Made by a program: the position numbers and the translations under genes
The notes under the pieces: generated by a model
Database searches by the model: none
Told to the model about the DNA's origin: nothing
What the model saw: the letters and a program-made list of their open reading frames with translations, nothing else
Origin: Phascolarctobacterium sp.
GTDB taxonomy: Bacteria; Bacillota; Negativicutes; Acidaminococcales; Acidaminococcaceae
Assembly (NCBI RefSeq): GCF_030531065.1
Contig: NZ_JAUNOQ010000014.1
Coordinates: 1 to 58,534, forward strand
Direction of reading: 5' to 3'
Length of the DNA: 58,534 nucleotides
In this document: positions 47,726-58,534 of the stretch, in pieces
Layout: each line of letters opens with the position of its first letter
Numbering within the stretch: the first letter of the stretch is position 1

Positions 47726-48241
47726 TTATTTACTTTTACCGAAAATATAACCTAATGCTACCGAAACTATAGGTATTAATATTTTCCATATCTCCGCATT
47801 TATATTTCCACGTCTACAAACATACCCAAATATTAAATCTATACCACAAATTACTAACGCAAATAAACATATAAGAAAAGCTGTATTAAAAGCTGCATTT
47901 TTTATATTAGCACCTATTACTTTGCCAATCCAGCCACTATCTTTTTCTTTTTGTTGAATCGAATTATGACTTGATAAAACCTCACCTTTTTGATCCTCAT
48001 TTAAATGATCGAATGTTGATGTTGATAACCCTCCAACCTTATCCTTCGCATTATTAGAACTATCACAATCCGTTAAAACATGTTTAGTATCTATGTTAGC
48101 AGTATTTTCTTTAATACCTTCGCATTTATTACTACTACTATCGTTCACTACAACTTCAATAGCTCTTTCTCCAACATTTCCTAACTTAGCATTATCAACT
48201 ATTTTATATGCTTCATGAGATGTATCTTGTTTCATAATCAT
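47726..48241 (-). CDS. Two-TM protein paired with the cyclase-like gene (Pycsar TM-effector-like)
   Basis: A 171-residue protein of no family I can name with certainty. The first 100 residues are hydrophilic and Ser/Asn/Lys/Asp-rich. Two membrane helices lie at the C-terminus (about 117-140, AFLICLFALVICGIDLIFGY, and 151-169, IWKILIPIVSVALGYIFG). Its start overlaps the stop of the cyclase-like gene by 4 bases (ATGA). Gene pairing, size and a membrane pore-like tail fit the effector slot of Pycsar defence, where a membrane effector responds to cyclic UMP/CMP. No cyclic-nucleotide-binding domain is obvious, so the role is inference. AT-rich composition suggests transfer. Confidence 0.6.
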   Translation of the reverse strand: MIMKQDTSHEAYKIVDNAKLGNVGERAIEVVVNDSSSNKCEGIKENTANIDTKHVLTDCDSSNNAKDKVGGLSTSTFDHLNEDQKGEVLSSHNSIQQKEKDSGWIGKVIGANIKNAAFNTAFLICLFALVICGIDLIFGYVCRRGNINAEIWKILIPIVSVALGYIFGKSK

Positions 48242-49005
48242 TCACCATCACAGTACATACATCTTGATTCTTCTAGATTTTTAATCCATTGATCGAATTT
48301 AGTTTTAACTATATCTGCTGTATAATATTCTTCATCTTCATTTACATGCTTTTGAAACCAATCTCTAGGACTTTCTTGAGAATTAATATTTTCTAAAGAC
48401 TTAATAAAATTATCATAACTAAGCCTACTAAATGCTAGAGTTTTATTTTTATCTTTTATGGCGTAATCAGATAATCTAACAGCAATGTTTTTTGTCCCTT
48501 TAATCCAAACATTCACTTTCAATCGCTTATCTATATCTGTTACTCTAAATACGCAATCTTGCAGCGTCGCCATCCCAATACCAATTTTAATTTTAAGCAA
48601 GCCATGATCATTTAATATTTTATTAAACAGTTTTACAAACGTATTTATTATAAATGTTTTATTTGCTACATAATATGTATCTTCCTGATAAGGGGTAAAA
48701 TATATTGCATAAAAATACGATCCCTGCAAACCATATTCTATAAGCAACTTAGATGAAGCAAATATCCTTAAAATCTCCGAAGAAAAACTTCGCATTACTT
48801 TATAATATTCTTGTAACTCTCTGTTTTTATAAAAATTTATTATATTGCTAATATTCACTGAGATACAACTAACCCAACCACTATATAAACAATCTTCACT
48901 AAATTCATCTTCACTTCCTATATTATGTTTTTCTTTATAACCACTTTGATGTTCAATTATTTCATTAATCCGTTCAAATGCTCTTTCATAGTCATATTCA
49001 GCCAT
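48238..49005 (-). CDS. Class III nucleotidyl-cyclase-fold protein with substituted metal sites (Pycsar cyclase-like)
   Basis: A 255-residue protein whose middle follows the class III cyclase pattern of Pycsar-type uridylate/cytidylate cyclases: a first strand SCISVNISNI (residues 46-55), helix YYKVMRSFSSEILRIF, hairpin YGLQGSYFYAIYFTPYQED (91-109), and IKIGIGMATLQ (139-149). In active enzymes the first strand has Asp (VDI) and the hairpin has GD, both holding metal. Here they are Asn51 and Ser96, 45 residues apart as expected. It is thus either inactive or uses other chemistry. TAAGGAG precedes the ATG. Operon with the two-TM gene. Confidence 0.65.
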   Translation of the reverse strand: MAEYDYERAFERINEIIEHQSGYKEKHNIGSEDEFSEDCLYSGWVSCISVNISNIINFYKNRELQEYYKVMRSFSSEILRIFASSKLLIEYGLQGSYFYAIYFTPYQEDTYYVANKTFIINTFVKLFNKILNDHGLLKIKIGIGMATLQDCVFRVTDIDKRLKVNVWIKGTKNIAVRLSDYAIKDKNKTLAFSRLSYDNFIKSLENINSQESPRDWFQKHVNEDEEYYTADIVKTKFDQWIKNLEESRCMYCDGE

Positions 49006-49353: not shown

Positions 49354-51006
49354 TTATTCTTTTTTTATATACGATAATCCTCTCTTTATAAATTCTTGTA
49401 TATCTGTTTTTCTTATATGTTTAGCATGTACTTCTGGTTCAAACTTTAAATCATCAATCTTTATTTCTCTTATGTCATTAATATGAGTTCCTATAGTAAA
49501 AAATCTTATAGGCTTATTAAACTTCAATGCATTAACTATTTCAAATAGAACCCCATCTGATATACGACCATACACCCATAATTCATCACATTTGATAACC
49601 ATTTGATTATTTGCTTGACGAACAAGATTTCTTTCTACCCTATCATCCAAAAAATATCCAAAACTTCTATATGGATTTATAGGTATTGCATTATTTTTGA
49701 AAACATGCTCACAAATAATGTTCTTTGCATAAAAACTTGTCTTAGAATGAGCCGTAAAAACTATTATCATTGATTCAATTGGACTTGTTTTCACACCCAA
49801 ATCTTCAATTATTTGTTTGAAATCCTCATCCTTTTTTATTTTTAGAGCTACATAAGCACCACTTACAAAAGCAGCTACAAGACCTCTAAAAAGTGCCGTT
49901 CCGTCACCTACAACATATACTCCTGGAGCTATTTGTAAATTAGTATCAGGAATCGGATATTTACCATATTTTTCAATTTCTGGTCCATATACTAAACCTA
50001 CTGCATCACTAGTTAAAAGTACATTTAAATATTTACGAATTTCATTATCCAATGGAAGCCCTAAAAATTTTTTACCACTACGATATTCAGTTAAATCAAT
50101 TTTATTAGGGTTTAAAGTTTTATATACATCTACACCGTTACGATATAAAATTGATTTTACATTAGAACTCTTAACCACAATACCTATATTAGTTTTCGAA
50201 TAACCAACGACAGTTTCTCCATTATAAGTAATATGTTTATCATCATAAAAAGATTCTACTACTCTACCCTGCCAACAAGTGCAGAATGTGCGAACATCAG
50301 TATTATCATCTATATTAGTTATATTTTTCAAATCTTCCTTTTTGTCTTTATAAGTAAAATACCTGTTCTCACACTCTACGCGTACACCAACCTCACAATA
50401 TTTTCGATATCTTATATTTTCTATATCTCTTAACATGTTACTAGAAGATCGTTTTCCCGAAGCAATTATTACATTAAGTCCTTGATATTCAATGCTGTCC
50501 TCGCATTCTACCTTAAAGCCACTTTCAACTCTTCTTATATTTAATACTTTCGAACCTAAACGCACTTTATTGGAATCCAGGATTACTTTATGAAAATAAT
50601 CCAATATTTTATAACGTTCATCGTCACCTATACGAATATGCTTGTAATGCTTTTCACCATCCATTCTTTCACGATTAGAACACTGAACTATCCAATCACA
50701 GTTCCAAGGCAAAACATCTATGTTCAAAGAACTTAATAACTCGTAAAAATTATTATACGCATTCTCTAAAAGACGGCTATCCCTAACAGTCCAAAGTTTT
50801 GAAGCTGCTGGCGGATAAGAAAACTTACCATCAGAAAATAGCCCTGCGCCACCAAATCCATAACTTACGTCGTAAGGACGAGATGATTTCCTTTCTAGAT
50901 AATCACTTCCTTGCTCTATAACTATATAGCTTAGGTTATTTTTACCTAATATGTATCCTGCCATTAAACCAGCAGGACCAGCACCTATTATTATTGCATC
51001 ATACAT
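49354..51006 (-). CDS. FAD-dependent oxidoreductase fused to a nucleoside-deoxyribosyltransferase-like domain
   Basis: A 550-residue two-domain protein. Residues 1-400 form a GR2-type flavoprotein: dinucleotide motif IIIGAGPAGLMAGYIL at 6-21, VIASGKRSSSNML near 185, and a late FAD motif VYVVGDGTALFRGLVAAFVSGAYVAL near 370, like the FAD-dependent dehydrogenases of COG2509. Residues about 408-510 match the DUF4406/DUF7768 or nucleoside 2-deoxyribosyltransferase-like fold: IIVFTAHSKT, AIPINPYRSFGYFLDD, CDELWVYGRISDGVLFEIVNAL and KPIRFFTIG. I know no characterised protein with this fusion. It lies 18 bases after the dCTP-deaminase-like gene, so they are co-transcribed. Substrate unknown. Confidence 0.75.
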   Translation of the reverse strand: MYDAIIIGAGPAGLMAGYILGKNNLSYIVIEQGSDYLERKSSRPYDVSYGFGGAGLFSDGKFSYPPAASKLWTVRDSRLLENAYNNFYELLSSLNIDVLPWNCDWIVQCSNRERMDGEKHYKHIRIGDDERYKILDYFHKVILDSNKVRLGSKVLNIRRVESGFKVECEDSIEYQGLNVIIASGKRSSSNMLRDIENIRYRKYCEVGVRVECENRYFTYKDKKEDLKNITNIDDNTDVRTFCTCWQGRVVESFYDDKHITYNGETVVGYSKTNIGIVVKSSNVKSILYRNGVDVYKTLNPNKIDLTEYRSGKKFLGLPLDNEIRKYLNVLLTSDAVGLVYGPEIEKYGKYPIPDTNLQIAPGVYVVGDGTALFRGLVAAFVSGAYVALKIKKDEDFKQIIEDLGVKTSPIESMIIVFTAHSKTSFYAKNIICEHVFKNNAIPINPYRSFGYFLDDRVERNLVRQANNQMVIKCDELWVYGRISDGVLFEIVNALKFNKPIRFFTIGTHINDIREIKIDDLKFEPEVHAKHIRKTDIQEFIKRGLSYIKKE

Positions 51007-51024
51007 AATAAATATACCACCTAT

Positions 51025-52143
51025 CTACCTATTTCCTATGGTAAACAATAAAGCTAAAACTGCAACCATAATTGCTAGTGATGTAAGATAAAGTTGTTGC
51101 ATTTTGTTATTTTCCTTACGTAACCCTTCGACATCCTTTTTTAGTTCATTAATTGCACCATTCATAATATTTCGTGGCAAGTACGACACCATTGAGTATT
51201 CATACGCGTGGCTTCCTCTATAACCGTCAGTAGGCTCGATCAATTTATTGAACTCTAACGTGGAGAAAGGCATCCCGCGCTTTAGATAAACCGTTTTGTT
51301 GGAAGTGTTAAACAACAAACAAAATAACTTACCATTAAATCCAGGATCTACTTGTGTACTATTGGATAAAATAATTCCTTCAAAGAATAAATTTACCACT
51401 AAATCAAATCTGCCTATTACGTCTCTAGGAAAAGAAATTATTTCTTTGCTTGAAGCAATTATATAATCATATGGCTCTATAGGAATAAATGGTTGACTAT
51501 TATCAAGCGTTTGTACCTTCCCCTCATAATAATACTCGTCTCCTAAAGTTAAGTCATAAGATGCGTAGCTAATATTCCTATAGTTACAATTTCTAACAAG
51601 CATTCCGCATTTTATCATTTTTTCAATCATATCACGAGATAGAACCCCGCCAGTATTTCTATAATGCCAAAGCTTTTGTATTAATTCACATGTATCTTCA
51701 AGATTATTGTATATAAGTCTATAGGTACACTTATTATATGAACGACAATCAATAGCTGTAATGGTTTTTTCATTATCAATTCTAATAACCATAAATTTAT
51801 AAAGTTCATTGATATAAAGGAGGCTATCAAAAAATGAATCCGGCATAATTATTATAGCTACATTACCTGATAAATGCTGTCTTCTTACATCCGCCATGTC
51901 AAAAATAAATCTACAGCTATCTTTTTGTAATTTTATTTCAGAAGAAAAAGAATAATATATCAAAGATGATGAAGGTATACTTTCAATATAATCTATTAAC
52001 ATACTATTAAGTATAAAATCAGTCCTAGCCTTAATACGAACAAAAGTATAATCATCTGTACTTCTTGAAATTAGTTTATCAGCAATATTCTTACAAGTTT
52101 CAAGATCATAACCTATTAAAATAATACCATAGTAATTCATCAT
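51025..52143 (-). CDS. Membrane-anchored dCTP-deaminase/dUTPase-fold protein
   Basis: A 372-residue protein. The N-terminal 155 residues have no family I recognise. Residues about 163-315 follow dCTP deaminase: GVLSRDMIEKMIKCGML, ISYASYDLTLGDEYYY, IASSKEIISFPRDVIGRF, TQVDPGFNGKL near 268, and LKRGMPFSTLEF. The catalytic positions look lost: the Ser-Ser-x-Gly-Arg region reads RFDLVVN and the GxIxLE glutamate position reads LFCLLFN. A coiled coil (about 328-350) and a C-terminal membrane helix (352-368) follow, so the fold probably faces the cytosol as a tail-anchored sensor. Dcd enzymes with normal residues act in phage defence by depleting dCTP. Confidence 0.7.
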   Translation of the reverse strand: MMNYYGIILIGYDLETCKNIADKLISRSTDDYTFVRIKARTDFILNSMLIDYIESIPSSSLIYYSFSSEIKLQKDSCRFIFDMADVRRQHLSGNVAIIIMPDSFFDSLLYINELYKFMVIRIDNEKTITAIDCRSYNKCTYRLIYNNLEDTCELIQKLWHYRNTGGVLSRDMIEKMIKCGMLVRNCNYRNISYASYDLTLGDEYYYEGKVQTLDNSQPFIPIEPYDYIIASSKEIISFPRDVIGRFDLVVNLFFEGIILSNSTQVDPGFNGKLFCLLFNTSNKTVYLKRGMPFSTLEFNKLIEPTDGYRGSHAYEYSMVSYLPRNIMNGAINELKKDVEGLRKENNKMQQLYLTSLAIMVAVLALLFTIGNR

Positions 52144-53357: not shown

Positions 53358-54203
53358 CTACTTAGAATAATTATATACATATCTGTACTTTATCTTTCCT
53401 GTATATATAGCTAATAACTTCTCAAATGTTCTTTTTGAAGAAATATTATCAGCTTCTGCCCAATCATATTGATTCGTTGTAGAAAATTCCCATCTTTTTT
53501 GAGAGGCAAAATACATACGTAAAATAACGCTTAAATTCCTTCCACGATAATCACTATCTACTATTATACGCCCAGCTTTAGTTGTAAAATAATAAACACC
53601 TATCAATTTTTCATAAATGTATAAACCAACAACATTACCTTTTTTTACTTGTTCATCCCAATCATCATCTTCTATAGAAAATCCGTTATACTTCCCCATA
53701 TTATCAGCTATCAATTCTTCAACATACTTTTTATCATCAATAGCTACACTTCTCATTACCATACCAACATTTGATAATTTTTTACTATATTTTTCTAAAT
53801 ATCTAACAGATAATTTATGTAAATACCCATAAAACAATCTTACTTGCTCATATTTTTGCTGACAAACAAAGCCACTAGCCAATAACAAATTATGAAAAAA
53901 AATAATATGAGTATCATTTTTTTGTTGTTCATAAATATCACAACAAACATCCTTATCCATTATTGGCAATCTCTGTACAAGATTTGTAAGCCCGCAAAAA
54001 TACAGTCTATAAAAATCCCCTTGGTCTATAAGAATAAACAAAGCACCATCAACGACTTCACACTTTACTTTTCCTTCATATATATATTTAGAAATAATAT
54101 TTTTATTAACAAAAAAGTTTGTAGAGCCCCTTGTCTTCTTGTTAACAACATAGTCAGTATAAAGTTTTTCATATTCACTCAAAATATTTATTGTTCTCAA
54201 CAC
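53358..54203 (-). CDS. GNAT-like protein of the glycan locus (paralogue of 56419-57369)
   Basis: A 281-residue protein with a C-terminal GNAT-like region (NVVGLYIYEKLIGVYYFTT and VDSDYRGRNLSVILRMYFA with helix) after a less conserved N-terminal half. The middle block RLPIMDKDVCCDIYEQQ and HNLLLASGFVCQQKYEQ aligns with LPVLDKDILVENVY and ESLLENMGFTFCNTY of the protein at 56419-57369, showing common ancestry. Start is GTG 54203 with AAGGA 7 bases upstream, 4 bases after the MBL gene stop. Likely an acyl or aminoacyl transferase that takes its donor from the carrier proteins; the substrate is unknown. Confidence 0.65.
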   Translation of the reverse strand: MLRTINILSEYEKLYTDYVVNKKTRGSTNFFVNKNIISKYIYEGKVKCEVVDGALFILIDQGDFYRLYFCGLTNLVQRLPIMDKDVCCDIYEQQKNDTHIIFFHNLLLASGFVCQQKYEQVRLFYGYLHKLSVRYLEKYSKKLSNVGMVMRSVAIDDKKYVEELIADNMGKYNGFSIEDDDWDEQVKKGNVVGLYIYEKLIGVYYFTTKAGRIIVDSDYRGRNLSVILRMYFASQKRWEFSTTNQYDWAEADNISSKRTFEKLLAIYTGKIKYRYVYNYSK

Positions 54204-54206
54204 TTG

Positions 54207-54863
54207 TTATTCCTTCTTCTTATTATATCCGTAATACCTATTTAAAATAAATGATTCTCCATGACCTGGATATACCAACAAATCAGAAGACAAAGAATTT
54301 ATATAAGGAAGTGTAATTTCTTTAAATGCTTTAGGATCACCACCTGGAAATTTAGCAGCTGGTACATTTTCATCTAAAAGTATATCTCCGGAAAACAAAA
54401 TTTCCATATTCAAAAATATAAAATTTCCACCCTCACTATGCCCCGGAATTTGCTTCAAGTACAATTCATTCCCTTGCCATTGAAAGCAAATACTTTCATC
54501 AAATATTTCATCAGCACAACATACATAGTCATTTTCAAAAAAGAAATTCGGCTTTTTTAAACCTCCCTGAAATTCATAATATGCTTCAAAATATTTCGAG
54601 AAATTTTTAGTTGGCTTTTGACAATTACAATTACATTTACTATTTGCTAAAAGCTTACATCCAAAATATCTTTTAAATTGATTCACTCCACTTATATGAT
54701 CATAATGTTCGTGCGTAACAAGCATTAAATCAATGATTTTATTTTGCATCAATCGTTCTACTTCTTCATCATAATAAGGGTCAATTACTAGACAATGCCC
54801 TCCTTTCTCTAAAATATACATATTTTGATTAAGAAGAGGGGTAGTATATGTCCATATTTTCAT
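54207..54863 (-). CDS. MBL-fold metallo-hydrolase
   Basis: A 218-residue metallo-beta-lactamase-fold hydrolase of the glyoxalase II type. Metal-binding THEHYDHISG is at about residues 51-60, PGHSEGGNF near 138, FSGDILLDENVP near 155 and YPGHGES near 198. A cysteine cluster CNCNC lies at about 77-84. In a carrier-protein operon such enzymes can act as thioesterases that clear or release acyl groups; this is inference. It overlaps the ligase gene by 4 bases (ATGA). Confidence 0.8.
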   Translation of the reverse strand: MKIWTYTTPLLNQNMYILEKGGHCLVIDPYYDEEVERLMQNKIIDLMLVTHEHYDHISGVNQFKRYFGCKLLANSKCNCNCQKPTKNFSKYFEAYYEFQGGLKKPNFFFENDYVCCADEIFDESICFQWQGNELYLKQIPGHSEGGNFIFLNMEILFSGDILLDENVPAAKFPGGDPKAFKEITLPYINSLSSDLLVYPGHGESFILNRYYGYNKKKE

Positions 54864-56383
54864 ATTTCACTATTTCCTTGATAAATATTTTGCAATAATT
54901 TTTTATCTATTTTCCCATTAGCATTATGAGGCATTATCTCTAACACAAAAATCTTATTAGGCATCATATACTTAGGTAACTTATCCCTAACTCTTAATAG
55001 AATTACTTTTGAATTTAAATTTTCTCCAGTGCAATAAAGTACTATTAATTGCTTTATTTGATCATAAATACAGGCACATTCATAAACGCCTTCTACAGAA
55101 CTTACTGCAATTTCTATCTCGCCCAATTCTATCCTATATCCTTGATGCTTAATCTGAAAATCCTTTCTAGTAATGTAAACTAACTCACCTCTATCATTAT
55201 ATTTAACTAAATCACCAGTTTTATATATAATTTCAGGATAATGAGTATTTAAAGGATTTTGCACAAAGACTTCCTTGGTTTTTTCAGGATTATCATAATA
55301 ACCATAAGCAAGGAATGAACCTCGTACACATAACTCTCCTTCCTCATTTTCACCAGCCAAAGTGCCATCATCTTTTAAAACAAATACGTCACAATTACTG
55401 CACGCAGAACCAATAGGAATAGGTTCATCATCGTTAAAATCTCTATCCACAACATAATAGGTTGCTATATCCGTAGTTTCAGTTGGTCCAAATAAGTTAG
55501 CATACAATACATTTTTAGATAAATGCTTTCGCCAATAGTTTAACTGTTTTGTAGGCATAGCTTCGCCAGCAAAAAGGACTGTAATTAAATATGAAAGTTC
55601 ATGATTATCCAATGCTTTGAAGTTAGCTATCATATTCATAGCAGAAGGAACCCAATATATGGTATTTATCCTTTCGCTATTCATAAATTCTATTAGTTTA
55701 ACAGGAAAAGAAAAAAGTTGTTTAGGAATTACTACTAATTTAGCACCAGTATAGATAGTAGAAAACATAGTTGATACAGACATACTAAAATAAAATGGAG
55801 TCTGGCTACCGAAAATTGTTTTATCTGTTATGTTAAAAGTCTTTGCGTACCATTGTGCATATTTGATGACGCTTAAATGACTTAGAACTGTTCCTTTTGG
55901 CGTACCAGTAGAACCAGAAGTAAACAATGCATATATCGGATCAGTATCAATCATTTTTTTACGTATAGACGTCAGCTTAACTTCATTCACACTTGTTTTG
56001 ACAACTTCTTGATACATATGTACATCAATATCCATACCCAGCCTAGCTGCCTGATTCGCACATTTTTCATCTACTATGACAGCTAAGGGATTTAATGTAA
56101 AAAAAATATTTTTTATGCGTTCTATAGGCATCAATGCGTCAATAACAACATAAAAATTTCCACTATAAACAACGCCTATCATTGCTTCCCAAGCCTCTGC
56201 TGTATTATCCATGAAAACGGCGATAGGATTACGCATAGCATTGTATTGGCATAAAAAACTACCAATAGCCTGAGCGTTTTTTTGAAAGTCAGAAAAAGTA
56301 ATTTCTTTAAACGCATCCTTGCAGATTATATTATCAGCATATTTTAAAGTAGTATTCTCTAAACAATCCAAAATGGTAATCAT
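54860..56383 (-). CDS. DltA-like AMP-forming acyl/amino-acid ligase
   Basis: A 507-residue adenylating enzyme, about the size of DltA (D-alanine-carrier ligase) and NRPS adenylation domains. Motifs: TSGSTGTPKG near residue 150 (P-loop), LFGPTETTDIATYY near 300, YKTGDLVKYNDRGELVYITRKDFQIKHQGYRIELGEIE near 390-425 in two runs, and the catalytic lysine in ANGKIDKKLL near 495. No carrier domain is fused; the separate carrier genes upstream supply it. Substrate residues are not decoded here. Confidence 0.88.
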   Translation of the reverse strand: MITILDCLENTTLKYADNIICKDAFKEITFSDFQKNAQAIGSFLCQYNAMRNPIAVFMDNTAEAWEAMIGVVYSGNFYVVIDALMPIERIKNIFFTLNPLAVIVDEKCANQAARLGMDIDVHMYQEVVKTSVNEVKLTSIRKKMIDTDPIYALFTSGSTGTPKGTVLSHLSVIKYAQWYAKTFNITDKTIFGSQTPFYFSMSVSTMFSTIYTGAKLVVIPKQLFSFPVKLIEFMNSERINTIYWVPSAMNMIANFKALDNHELSYLITVLFAGEAMPTKQLNYWRKHLSKNVLYANLFGPTETTDIATYYVVDRDFNDDEPIPIGSACSNCDVFVLKDDGTLAGENEEGELCVRGSFLAYGYYDNPEKTKEVFVQNPLNTHYPEIIYKTGDLVKYNDRGELVYITRKDFQIKHQGYRIELGEIEIAVSSVEGVYECACIYDQIKQLIVLYCTGENLNSKVILLRVRDKLPKYMMPNKIFVLEIMPHNANGKIDKKLLQNIYQGNSEI

Positions 56384-56418: not shown

Positions 56419-57369
56419 TCACATTGTAGACTTAATTACAAACTGATTCATAGACTTCTCAGTAGCCTCAATACCAACCATTCGATATACTTTCCATGAA
56501 GAAATATTATTTACTGCAATCCATCCTCCAATACCTTTGCTGCGCATATATTCAATTTTAGCAGTCTCATCTTTAGGAATATTATCATAAAATTCCTTAA
56601 ACAAATACAATACTAAAATAGGAGCATATATATTACCTTGGCTATCTCGTCTAGAACCATAAGCTCCTCCACTTATGCGCGATTTGATAGCAATAGCATA
56701 TATTTTTTCTGTTTCATCTGTTATACAGTATAAATTTCCTGCATCAGCCTGAGCTTTACGTTCTTTTAATGTGAATTTTTTTTGTACAAATTTATCAATA
56801 ATACTACGATAAACTTTTTCAAACTCATACAGTTGACTATATTTAGGAATACTAATTTTTTTACCTTCCATAGCTAAAGCTTTTTCCATAACAGCTAATT
56901 TTTTATAAAATTTTTCTGGAGGAAGCGAAGGTCTATCCATAATTGATCTGTAGGTATTGCAAAAAGTAAATCCCATATTCTCTAAAAGACTCTCAAAATT
57001 TATCTGTTCAGACGTTTTCCTACCTTCATAATACACATTTTCAACCAATATGTCTTTATCTAAAACTGGTAAAGAACAATTTTCGGATAAATCTACAAAG
57101 AAAACCGTATGATAATATCCTCCTTCATCATCCGCCAATACAAGCCCCTGAGCTGTTCTGATTTTATAAAAACTCTTTAAAGCAATCAATCTCTTGATTT
57201 CAGAAGGCAGCATATAACAGTTAGAAAATATCTTATGTGGATAATTTTTCTTTATATTTTTTATAAGCATTGTATATTGTTCATAGGATTCAATTGGTAT
57301 TAATACACCCTTTTTAACTAGCTGTCTATGCTTATACCATCGCTTAATTTTATTAAAAACTTCTAGCAT
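56419..57369 (-). CDS. GNAT-like protein of the glycan locus (paralogue of 53358-54203)
   Basis: A 316-residue protein with a basic N-terminus (FNKIKRWYKHRQLVKKG), a conserved middle block with its paralogue, and a C-terminal GNAT-like half (YAIAIKSRISGGAYGSRRDSQG, YMRSKGIGGWIAVNNISSWKVYRMVGIEATEKSM). The open frame starts at 57390, but AAAGGAG 6 bases before ATG 57369 fits, just after the carrier-protein stop. Two such genes flank the ligase and MBL genes, so they may act in sequence or on different acceptors. Function by context only. Confidence 0.6.
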   Translation of the reverse strand: MLEVFNKIKRWYKHRQLVKKGVLIPIESYEQYTMLIKNIKKNYPHKIFSNCYMLPSEIKRLIALKSFYKIRTAQGLVLADDEGGYYHTVFFVDLSENCSLPVLDKDILVENVYYEGRKTSEQINFESLLENMGFTFCNTYRSIMDRPSLPPEKFYKKLAVMEKALAMEGKKISIPKYSQLYEFEKVYRSIIDKFVQKKFTLKERKAQADAGNLYCITDETEKIYAIAIKSRISGGAYGSRRDSQGNIYAPILVLYLFKEFYDNIPKDETAKIEYMRSKGIGGWIAVNNISSWKVYRMVGIEATEKSMNQFVIKSTM

Positions 57370-57370
57370 C

Positions 57371-57598
57371 TCATACTCCTTTAGAAGCATTAATAAGTCT
57401 CATCATACTCTCAACACTATCAAAATTTTCCGGAAGCATACTGTCAACAGGAATCTCTACAGAAAATTCATCCTCAATACTAGCTATAATAGTAACAATA
57501 TCAAAGGAATCAATATATCCATCGGTAACTAACGTATTAACATTACGAAAATCGACATCTGGTCTAATATCTTCTAATAATGCATATAATTTTTCCAT
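57371..57598 (-). CDS. Acyl carrier protein (fourth, divergent copy)
   Basis: A 75-residue acyl or peptidyl carrier protein: four-helix pattern with the phosphopantetheine serine at residue 31 in IDSFDIV. It is clearly different from the three tandem carriers (for example DGYIDSFD versus EEWDSIAA), so it probably serves another step. AGGAG lies 10 bases before the ATG. Confidence 0.85.
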   Translation of the reverse strand: MEKLYALLEDIRPDVDFRNVNTLVTDGYIDSFDIVTIIASIEDEFSVEIPVDSMLPENFDSVESMMRLINASKGV

Positions 57599-57618
57599 AA
57601 TTATCTTTCTCCTTTTAC

Positions 57619-57843
57619 TTATTCCATGTAAGCCAAAATATCCTTTACGCTTTTCATCGCTTTAATTTGAGCTCCGCTTACCGTCTTCTCAAAATTTTCA
57701 TCTAACATAACTATCAACGATAAGGCAGCTATAGAATCCCATTCTTCTACATCGCTGAGCAACGTTTCCGGGGTTAAGCTCCCTTCCTCTACGTCCAATA
57801 CTTCTTCAATCAGCGCCATTTTTTCTTTTAATTCCATTTTCAT
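57619..57843 (-). CDS. Acyl carrier protein, tandem copy 3 (in transcription order)
   Basis: A 74-residue carrier protein, same protein sequence as the two upstream copies. Phosphopantetheine serine is Ser37 in EEWDSIAALSLI, with recognition helix following. The DNA differs from the other copies at a few positions near the 3' end, so this copy is the oldest or has drifted. ATG at the third codon has better spacing from AGGAG than the first ATG, so the true protein may be 72 residues. Confidence 0.88.
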   Translation of the reverse strand: MKMELKEKMALIEEVLDVEEGSLTPETLLSDVEEWDSIAALSLIVMLDENFEKTVSGAQIKAMKSVKDILAYME

Positions 57844-57856
57844 ACTCTCCTTTTAC

Positions 57857-58081
57857 CTATTCCATATAAGCCAAAATATCTTTCACGCTTTTCATCGCTT
57901 TAATTTGAGCTCCGCTTACCGTCTTCTCAAAATTTTCATCTAACATAACTATCAACGATAAGGCAGCTATAGAATCCCATTCTTCTACATCGCTGAGCAA
58001 CGTTTCCGGGGTTAAGCTCCCTTCCTCTACGTCCAATACTTCTTCAATCAGCGCCATTTTTTCTTTTAATTCCATTTTCAT
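57857..58081 (-). CDS. Acyl carrier protein, tandem copy 2
   Basis: Same 74-residue protein as its neighbours, with Ser37 attachment site. By eye its DNA and that of copy 1 are identical through the coding region. Same ribosome-site remark as copy 3: two close ATGs, the second better spaced. Confidence 0.88.
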   Translation of the reverse strand: MKMELKEKMALIEEVLDVEEGSLTPETLLSDVEEWDSIAALSLIVMLDENFEKTVSGAQIKAMKSVKDILAYME

Positions 58082-58094
58082 ACTCTCCTTTTAC

Positions 58095-58319
58095 CTATTC
58101 CATATAAGCCAAAATATCTTTCACGCTTTTCATCGCTTTAATTTGAGCTCCGCTTACCGTCTTCTCAAAATTTTCATCTAACATAACTATCAACGATAAG
58201 GCAGCTATAGAATCCCATTCTTCTACATCGCTGAGCAACGTTTCCGGGGTTAAGCTCCCTTCCTCTACGTCCAATACTTCTTCAATCAGCGCCATTTTTT
58301 CTTTTAATTCCATTTTCAT
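58095..58319 (-). CDS. Acyl carrier protein, tandem copy 1 (first gene of the operon)
   Basis: Same 74-residue protein with Ser37. First in transcription order of the carrier/ligase/GNAT/rfbD operon. The upstream sequence departs from the repeat within a few bases of its ribosome site. Confidence 0.88.
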   Translation of the reverse strand: MKMELKEKMALIEEVLDVEEGSLTPETLLSDVEEWDSIAALSLIVMLDENFEKTVSGAQIKAMKSVKDILAYME

Positions 58320-58534
58320 ACTCTCCTCGTATAATATATTCAGAAGCCAAAAGCAGCTTCCGTTAAATTAACATATTTGTGTAATCGGCTTAGTCAAGCC
58401 CATGATATAATTGACTCAGTGTCAATCAGGCATTAGTTCTTTCACTCCTTGTTGAACCGCTTAGGTTACTTCAATGTAAAGTCTGTTCCCCTGACATGGA
58501 AGTTAACTTCAAACCAGCTGGCTGTTTGCTTGAT
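58320..58534. other. Leader and promoter region upstream of the carrier-protein operon
   Basis: AT-rich, no gene seen. On the minus strand it holds a possible promoter TTGACT-16-TATGTT and the palindrome TTGACACTGAGTCAA (about 58418-58432). The window ends here, so the true start of the locus is not visible. Confidence 0.4.

What the first reader, a model, noticed from the sequence alone, without database searches (positions are those of the whole stretch)
57608..58327. Three tandem copies of one acyl carrier protein gene
Three consecutive genes encode the same 74-residue protein on a 238-bp repeat that includes each ribosome site; two copies look DNA-identical, the third has a few changes. 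Multi-copy carriers raise output in some PUFA/PKS synthases as fused domains, but free tandem identical genes are unusual. They may raise carrier dose or be unstable by recombination, giving copy-number phase variation of a surface modification.
Basis: partly seen in the sequence, partly recalled or inferred. Interest (0 to 1): 0.65.

Follow-up and report, generated by a model that had tools for sequence, protein, structure and literature searches.

The report
Tandem acyl carrier genes beside IS110
A gut bacterium carries three back-to-back copies of the same small carrier-protein gene in a set of genes for decorating its surface sugars; the copies probably arose when two identical ribosome-binding sites recombined, and most likely just add carrier dose, with no sign of an on/off switch.

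Summary
Three 238-bp head-to-tail units (57608-58327, minus strand), each with its own ribosome site, encode an identical 74-aa acyl carrier protein (72 aa if the second ATG is the start). Units 1 and 2 are DNA-identical; unit 3 differs at four silent sites within 28 nt. The genes belong to a surface-polysaccharide locus of an Acidaminococcaceae bacterium (two KASIII, two SDR ketoreductases, ACP(s), a DltC-like carrier, a DltA-like ligase), resembling the Flavobacterium psychrophilum wfpC-G pathway for 3,5-dihydroxyhexanoyl groups. Head-to-tail copies recur in Phascolarctobacterium faecium (two, 91.5% identical, dN/dS about 0.2); apart from a second Phascolarctobacterium assembly that breaks inside the gene, no other case appeared among 380 Negativicutes genomes. 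The junctions fit duplication between 9-bp Shine-Dalgarno repeats (AAAAGGAGA) flanking the gene. The likeliest effect is additive carrier dose; phase variation has no support, and the exact copy number is unverified without reads. All nine such ends in this genome sit in a Shine-Dalgarno sequence, and the putative bridge-RNA target loop contains CTCCT.

The parts
57608..58327 (-). Tandem array: three 238-bp units, each RBS + ACP1 gene
58095..58319 (-). ACP1 copy 1 (first in transcription order)
   Evidence: PP-binding E 5e-7; DSW-type motif EEWDSIAALS with Ser in all copies
57857..58081 (-). ACP1 copy 2, DNA-identical to copy 1
57619..57843 (-). ACP1 copy 3, four silent differences at the 3' end
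57371..57598 (-). ACP2, second carrier, DltC/aminoacyl-carrier-like
   Evidence: PP-binding E 4e-5; best solved relatives include aminoacyl and peptidyl carriers
56419..57390 (-). 323-aa protein of unknown fold, perhaps an acyl/aminoacyl transferase
   Evidence: No Pfam/NCBIfam hit; weakly similar to the 53358 protein; model poor
54860..56383 (-). DltA-like adenylation ligase, likely loads ACP2
   Evidence: AMP-binding E 5e-56; AA-adenyl-dom and DltA models below their cut-offs
54207..54863 (-). Metallo-beta-lactamase-fold hydrolase, possible thioesterase
   Evidence: role inferred
53358..54203 (-). GNAT-like protein (by eye), conserved last gene of the cassette
   Evidence: 56-57% identical in two relatives at the same place; no Pfam hit
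58326..58534 (+). Non-coding end of an IS110-family element inserted in the Shine-Dalgarno of copy 1 (core CT/AG at 58326-58327); contains a GTTC-loop-GAAC hairpin with CTCCT (possible bridge-RNA target guide)

Best explanation
The three genes are equivalent copies of one dedicated acyl carrier protein. It probably carries the growing chain of a small type II fatty-acid-like pathway (two KASIII condensing enzymes and two SDR ketoreductases, no dehydratase or enoyl reductase seen) that makes a short 3-hydroxy- or 3,5-dihydroxyacyl group for an amino sugar of a surface polysaccharide. A DltA-like ligase and the second carrier ACP2 probably add an aminoacyl branch. The array most likely arose by recombination or slippage between two 9-bp AAAAGGAGA Shine-Dalgarno repeats that flank this 225-bp gene. 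That duplicates exactly one gene with its own RBS; the next round could then use the long homology. The copies most likely act additively, raising carrier protein without changing the chemistry. Shown: the array, its identity, the junction sequence, the gene neighbourhood, recurrence in P. faecium. Inferred: the acyl product, the sugar, the duplication route and the dose benefit.
For: Array and identity. Locus with KASIII x2, SDR x2, PglD-like protein, ABC exporter, rhamnose genes and sugar transferase in the own genome and relatives. Same enzyme set proposed for 3,5-dihydroxyhexanoyl in F. psychrophilum (PMC6519341). Junction GTAAAAGGAGAGTATG equals the exchange product between the Shine-Dalgarno regions of ACP2 and ACP1, which share AAAAGGAGA. 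Two constrained tandem copies in P. faecium: dN 0.055, dS 0.25. More ACP domains give more product in PUFA synthases (PMC5067506, PMC3585217), by analogy.
Against: No expression, protein-level or glycan data. Most relatives with similar loci manage with one ACP1. The KASIII/SDR genes are on another contig, and the IS110 element between them may uncouple transcription. Copies 1 and 2 are so recent that selection cannot be shown.
Confidence: 0.55

Rival explanations
1. Recent neutral or transient tandem duplication with no selected function; it will collapse again by recombination.
For: Copies 1 and 2 have no differences and copy 3 only four silent ones; tandem duplications arise often and are usually lost (established knowledge).
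Against: Two diverged copies have been kept under constraint in P. faecium with different junctions, so this carrier gene is duplicated repeatedly.
Confidence: 0.3
2. Assembly error: the true copy number is one or two, or more than three.
For: Array near a contig end; the assembly failed to resolve IS110 copies; units identical over 205 nt.
Against: Unit 3 carries four distinguishing bases; assemblers tend to collapse, not invent, repeats; P. faecium has clearly diverged tandem copies.
Confidence: 0.08
3. Copy-number phase variation of a surface modification.
For: Long identical direct repeats can recombine (established knowledge).
Against: Every recombinant keeps at least one complete gene with RBS, so there is no off state; no strain variation could be seen in the data held.
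Confidence: 0.04
4. The copies are specialised carriers for different steps of the pathway.
For: P. faecium copies differ at 7 residue-changing codons; two KASIII and two SDRs could use separate carriers.
Confidence: 0.03

Closest known systems
Flavobacterium psychrophilum O-PS R1-group genes wfpC-wfpG (PMC6519341)
   Same: Two ketoacyl-ACP synthases, ketoreductase, dedicated ACP and PglD-type acyltransferase in a polysaccharide locus
   Different: Only one ACP gene and one reductase are described there; here two SDRs, three ACP1 copies, plus a DltA-like ligase, second carrier, MBL and GNAT-like proteins; acyl product here unknown
Tandem ACP domains of PUFA synthases and some PKS (PMC3585217, PMC5067506)
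   Same: Several near-equivalent carriers in a row in one pathway; there the number raises yield
   Different: Those are domains fused in one polypeptide; here separate genes, each with its own RBS
P. faecium DSM 14760 orthologous locus (L058)
   Same: Same gene order, two head-to-tail ACP1 genes
   Different: Copies diverged (91.5% identity), different spacer, no IS110 between SDR_B and ACP1
DltA/DltC pair
   Same: Ligase and ACP2 are adjacent in Clostridia and the ligase matches DltA models
   Different: Scores are below the DltA/DltC cut-offs; here inside a polysaccharide locus; amino acid unknown
IS110 family, e.g. IS621 (PMC11208160)
   Same: DEDD/Transposase_20 recombinase in relatives, long non-coding end, two-base core, conserved target
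   Different: Here every right-end junction lies in a Shine-Dalgarno sequence; I found no paper describing such a target in the library searched

Membership tests
Acyl carrier protein (PF00550) | Profile match above the curated cut-off | tested here: met
   30.3 bits against 20.8
Acyl carrier protein (PF00550) | DS motif serine for phosphopantetheine | tested here: met
   D36 and S37 invariant in 7 sequences
Housekeeping AcpP | NCBIfam equivalog score above cut-off | tested here: not met
   Best 29.8 bits against 65; TIGR00517 19.3 against 70.45
F. psychrophilum-type R-group pathway | Two KASIII + ketoreductase + dedicated ACP + PglD-type protein in a polysaccharide locus | tested here: met
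   in the own genome KASIII/SDR lie on another contig (C18)
F. psychrophilum-type R-group pathway | 3,5-dihydroxyhexanoyl group on Qui2NAc4N | not testable with these tools
   Needs polysaccharide chemistry
Tandem-ACP megasynthase (PUFA/PKS) | ACP domains fused in one polypeptide | tested here: not met
   Separate ORFs with stop codons and RBS
Copy-number phase-variable locus | Variation in copy number between cells or strains with a phenotype switch | not testable with these tools
   No reads or sister strains held; no off state expected
IS110 insertion sequence (neighbouring element) | DEDD + Transposase_20 domains | tested here: inconclusive
   Met in full-length relatives; the own genome shows only the last 36 residues, 76% identical to one of them
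IS110 insertion sequence (neighbouring element) | Two-base core kept on both sides and a conserved target site | tested here: met
   AG at 6 of 6 left ends and 9 of 9 right ends; right side always an SD, start codon 8-14 nt from the AG
IS110 insertion sequence (neighbouring element) | Bridge RNA from the non-coding end pairing with target | tested here: inconclusive
   Hairpin loop with CTCCT in the window and in L089; fold z -0.94; no RNA data

The most novel reading that the evidence does not exclude
Shine-Dalgarno sequences act as recombination hot spots in this locus in two ways: as short direct repeats that copy one small gene with its RBS into a dose-raising array, and as the programmed target of an IS110 element whose bridge RNA carries the SD sequence and which sits exactly in front of genes.
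Probability: 0.3. Interest if true: 0.6.

Novelty: new variant of a known kind. Interest (0 to 1): 0.4.

Why it matters
Free, identical, tandem carrier genes would be a natural test of whether carrier supply limits a surface-glycan acylation pathway, and the junctions show a simple route to duplicate exactly one small operon gene with its ribosome site. The neighbouring IS110 suggests that a bridge RNA can be programmed to Shine-Dalgarno sequences, a kind of target found before very many genes.

Tried and rejected
(1) The 207-bp contig end was first read as a dispersed promoter or 5' leader because it precedes several genes. Rejected: left and right ends pair six to six with an AG core, and the same sequence flanks a full IS110 transposase in L089. 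(2) An outward promoter in that end: the best -35/-10 match (9 of 12) is within chance for the region (7 found, 4.0 +/- 2.1 expected); undecided. (3) Rfam over the array and element end: only sub-threshold chance hits. (4) Fold of the 209-nt end as RNA: z -0.94, not informative. (5) Structure of the 323-aa protein: mean pLDDT 50, not used. (6) Plasmid search with the array and with the transposase tail, and viral-contig search with ACP1: nothing. (7) Library search for standalone tandem bacterial ACP genes: only plant papers.

Full report
Observation. The array is real and at the stated place. Tandem Repeats Finder reports 57608-58327, period 238, three copies, 99% matches, score 1412, and the only other row in the window is a 31-bp repeat. 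The copies are 244 nt long at 238-nt spacing because each unit begins and ends with AGGAGA. On the minus strand the three ORFs are 58095-58319, 57857-58081 and 57619-57843, with identical 74-residue products that match Pfam PP-binding above its cut-off. Copies 1 and 2 are identical over the unit. Copy 3 differs at four positions (206, 209, 224 and 233 of the unit), all silent, inside 28 nt; random placement gives such clustering with P = 0.005, which fits an older split of copy 3 followed by a later duplication or by conversion of the rest. Orthologues start at the second ATG, so the protein is probably 72 residues. The window is the whole contig C7, which ends 207 bp beyond the array.

What the gene is. 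No housekeeping ACP model reaches its cut-off, and the closest solved structure is 2lml, annotated only as a putative acyl carrier protein. From memory I take 2lml to be GmACP3 of Geobacter metallireducens, which was not checked here; [quoted passage not shown] The own genome has ACP1 only here.

Neighbourhood. In Phascolarctobacterium faecium DSM 14760 (G008, same family as the window's genome; identified through contig NZ_QLTS01000001.1 of equal length) the locus is continuous: sugar transferase, acetyltransferase, ABC-2 permease, ABC ATPase, PglD-like protein, KASIII_A, KASIII_B, SDR_A, SDR_B, ACP1, ACP1, ACP2, the 323-aa protein, AMP-binding ligase, MBL hydrolase, GNAT-like protein. A Phascolarctobacterium MAG has the same order over two contigs. 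In the window's genome the KASIII and SDR genes lie on contig C18 together with sugar-nucleotide genes and the ABC exporter, and the window's contig carries ACP1 x3 and everything downstream, then rmlD and rmlB. KASIII and ketoreductase assignments rest on Pfam and NCBIfam. More distant relatives in the family have single ACP1 genes with similar partners. In several Clostridia the ligase and ACP2 pair stands beside large membrane-protein genes that look MBOAT/DltB-like by eye, which suggests a DltA/DltC-type aminoacyl pair.

Likely pathway. Two condensing enzymes, two ketoreductases and no dehydratase or enoyl reductase point to a short hydroxyacyl product. The best-documented parallel is F. 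psychrophilum, where wfpC and wfpE (ketoacyl-ACP synthases), wfpD (ACP), wfpF (reductase) and wfpG (PglD homologue) were proposed to make and attach the 3,5-dihydroxyhexanoyl group that was found chemically on Qui2NAc4N (PMC6519341). I infer the same logic here; the actual acyl group and sugar are not known.

How the array arose. The junction between copies reads GTAAAAGGAGAGTATG: its left part is the sequence before ACP2 (GTAAAAGGAGAAAG) and its right part the sequence before copy 1 (AGGAGAGTATG). With the IS110 element left out, the sequence before copy 1 is AAGAAAAGGAGAGTATG, and the two Shine-Dalgarno regions share the 9-mer AAAAGGAGA. A single exchange between these two short repeats duplicates exactly one gene with its RBS. 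In P. faecium the spacer between the two copies is different and AT-rich, and its copies are closer to each other (91.5%) than to ours (80-82%), so that duplication is independent or has been homogenised. Its dN 0.055 and dS 0.25 suggest both copies are constrained. In 380 Negativicutes genomes no other head-to-tail ACP1 pair appeared. The MAG's two contigs end and begin inside the ACP1 gene with a 28-bp overlap; this suggests, but does not show, a tandem there.

What it does. Extra equivalent carriers most simply raise carrier concentration. In PUFA synthases, yield rises with the number of ACP domains without a change of profile (PMC5067506), contributions are described as additive (PMC3585217), and linked E. 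coli ACPs raised fatty acid output up to 1.6-fold (PMC6831569). These are fused domains, so this is analogy. Neutral recent duplication is the main rival. Phase variation is unlikely because every recombinant keeps a working gene.

The neighbour. The 207 bp beyond the array are the end of a repeated element. Left ends (TCCAGCGGTAATATG...) occur at six contig positions, all preceded by AG; right ends (...GAATATATTATACG) occur at six contig ends plus three short 87-bp derivatives, all followed by AG. All nine right ends run into a Shine-Dalgarno sequence (AGGAG, once AGAGG) with the start codon 8-14 nt from the AG. By comparison, 0.66% of AG dinucleotides in the window have AGGAG or AGAGG with an ATG in the next 13 nt. 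The C18 end encodes the last 36 residues of a transposase that is 76% identical there to a full-length protein in a relative, and such relatives carry the IS110 Pfam domains. A viral contig (L089) has a complete element whose non-coding end reads like the window's end and which also abuts AGGAG before an ATG. Both ends contain a GTTC...GAAC hairpin whose loop holds CTCCT. [quoted passage not shown] Joining the C18 and C7 flanks at AG gives ...TAATAAAGAAAAGGAGAGTATG, an intact RBS between SDR_B and ACP1, as in P. faecium. That the two contigs flank one IS copy is inferred from synteny, from the shared divergent variant and from this restored site. The effect on transcription of the array is unknown.

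Limits. The copy number, the operon continuity across the IS110, the acyl product and any dose effect need wet-lab or read data.

Noticed in passing
window 58326-58534 and 1-42; own contigs C18, C19, C9, C24, C25 (left ends), C3, C4, C8, C11, C14 (right ends): An IS110-family element whose right ends all (9 of 9, including three short derivatives) lie in Shine-Dalgarno sequences, core AG/CT; its non-coding end has a hairpin loop with CTCCT that may be the bridge-RNA target guide. A related element in viral contig L089 (4953-6680) does the same.
   Followed up: partly
own contigs C21:126172-126260, C4:156175-156262, C26:9817-9905: Solo 87-bp derivatives of the IS110 end, bounded by AG on both sides and seated in the Shine-Dalgarno of the next gene: possible miniature, non-autonomous IS110 elements.
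   Followed up: partly
window 47726-49005: A PycC-like (Pycsar cyclase) gene (48238-49005, PADLOC E 6e-42) followed by a 171-aa protein with an apparent transmembrane end: a likely Pycsar anti-phage pair between rmlD and rmlB.
   Followed up: partly
window 49354-52143: A dCTP-deaminase-like protein with an apparent C-terminal transmembrane helix (51025-52143) next to an FAD-binding protein with a C-terminal DUF7768 (49354-51006), inserted in the polysaccharide locus; no PADLOC hit.
   Followed up: no
L060 10001-14323, L061 9732-14072, L064 9989-14443: In Clostridia the orthologues of the ligase and ACP2 stand as a DltA/DltC-like pair beside a large protein that looks MBOAT/DltB-like by eye, a possible divergent Dlt-type aminoacylation set.
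   Followed up: no
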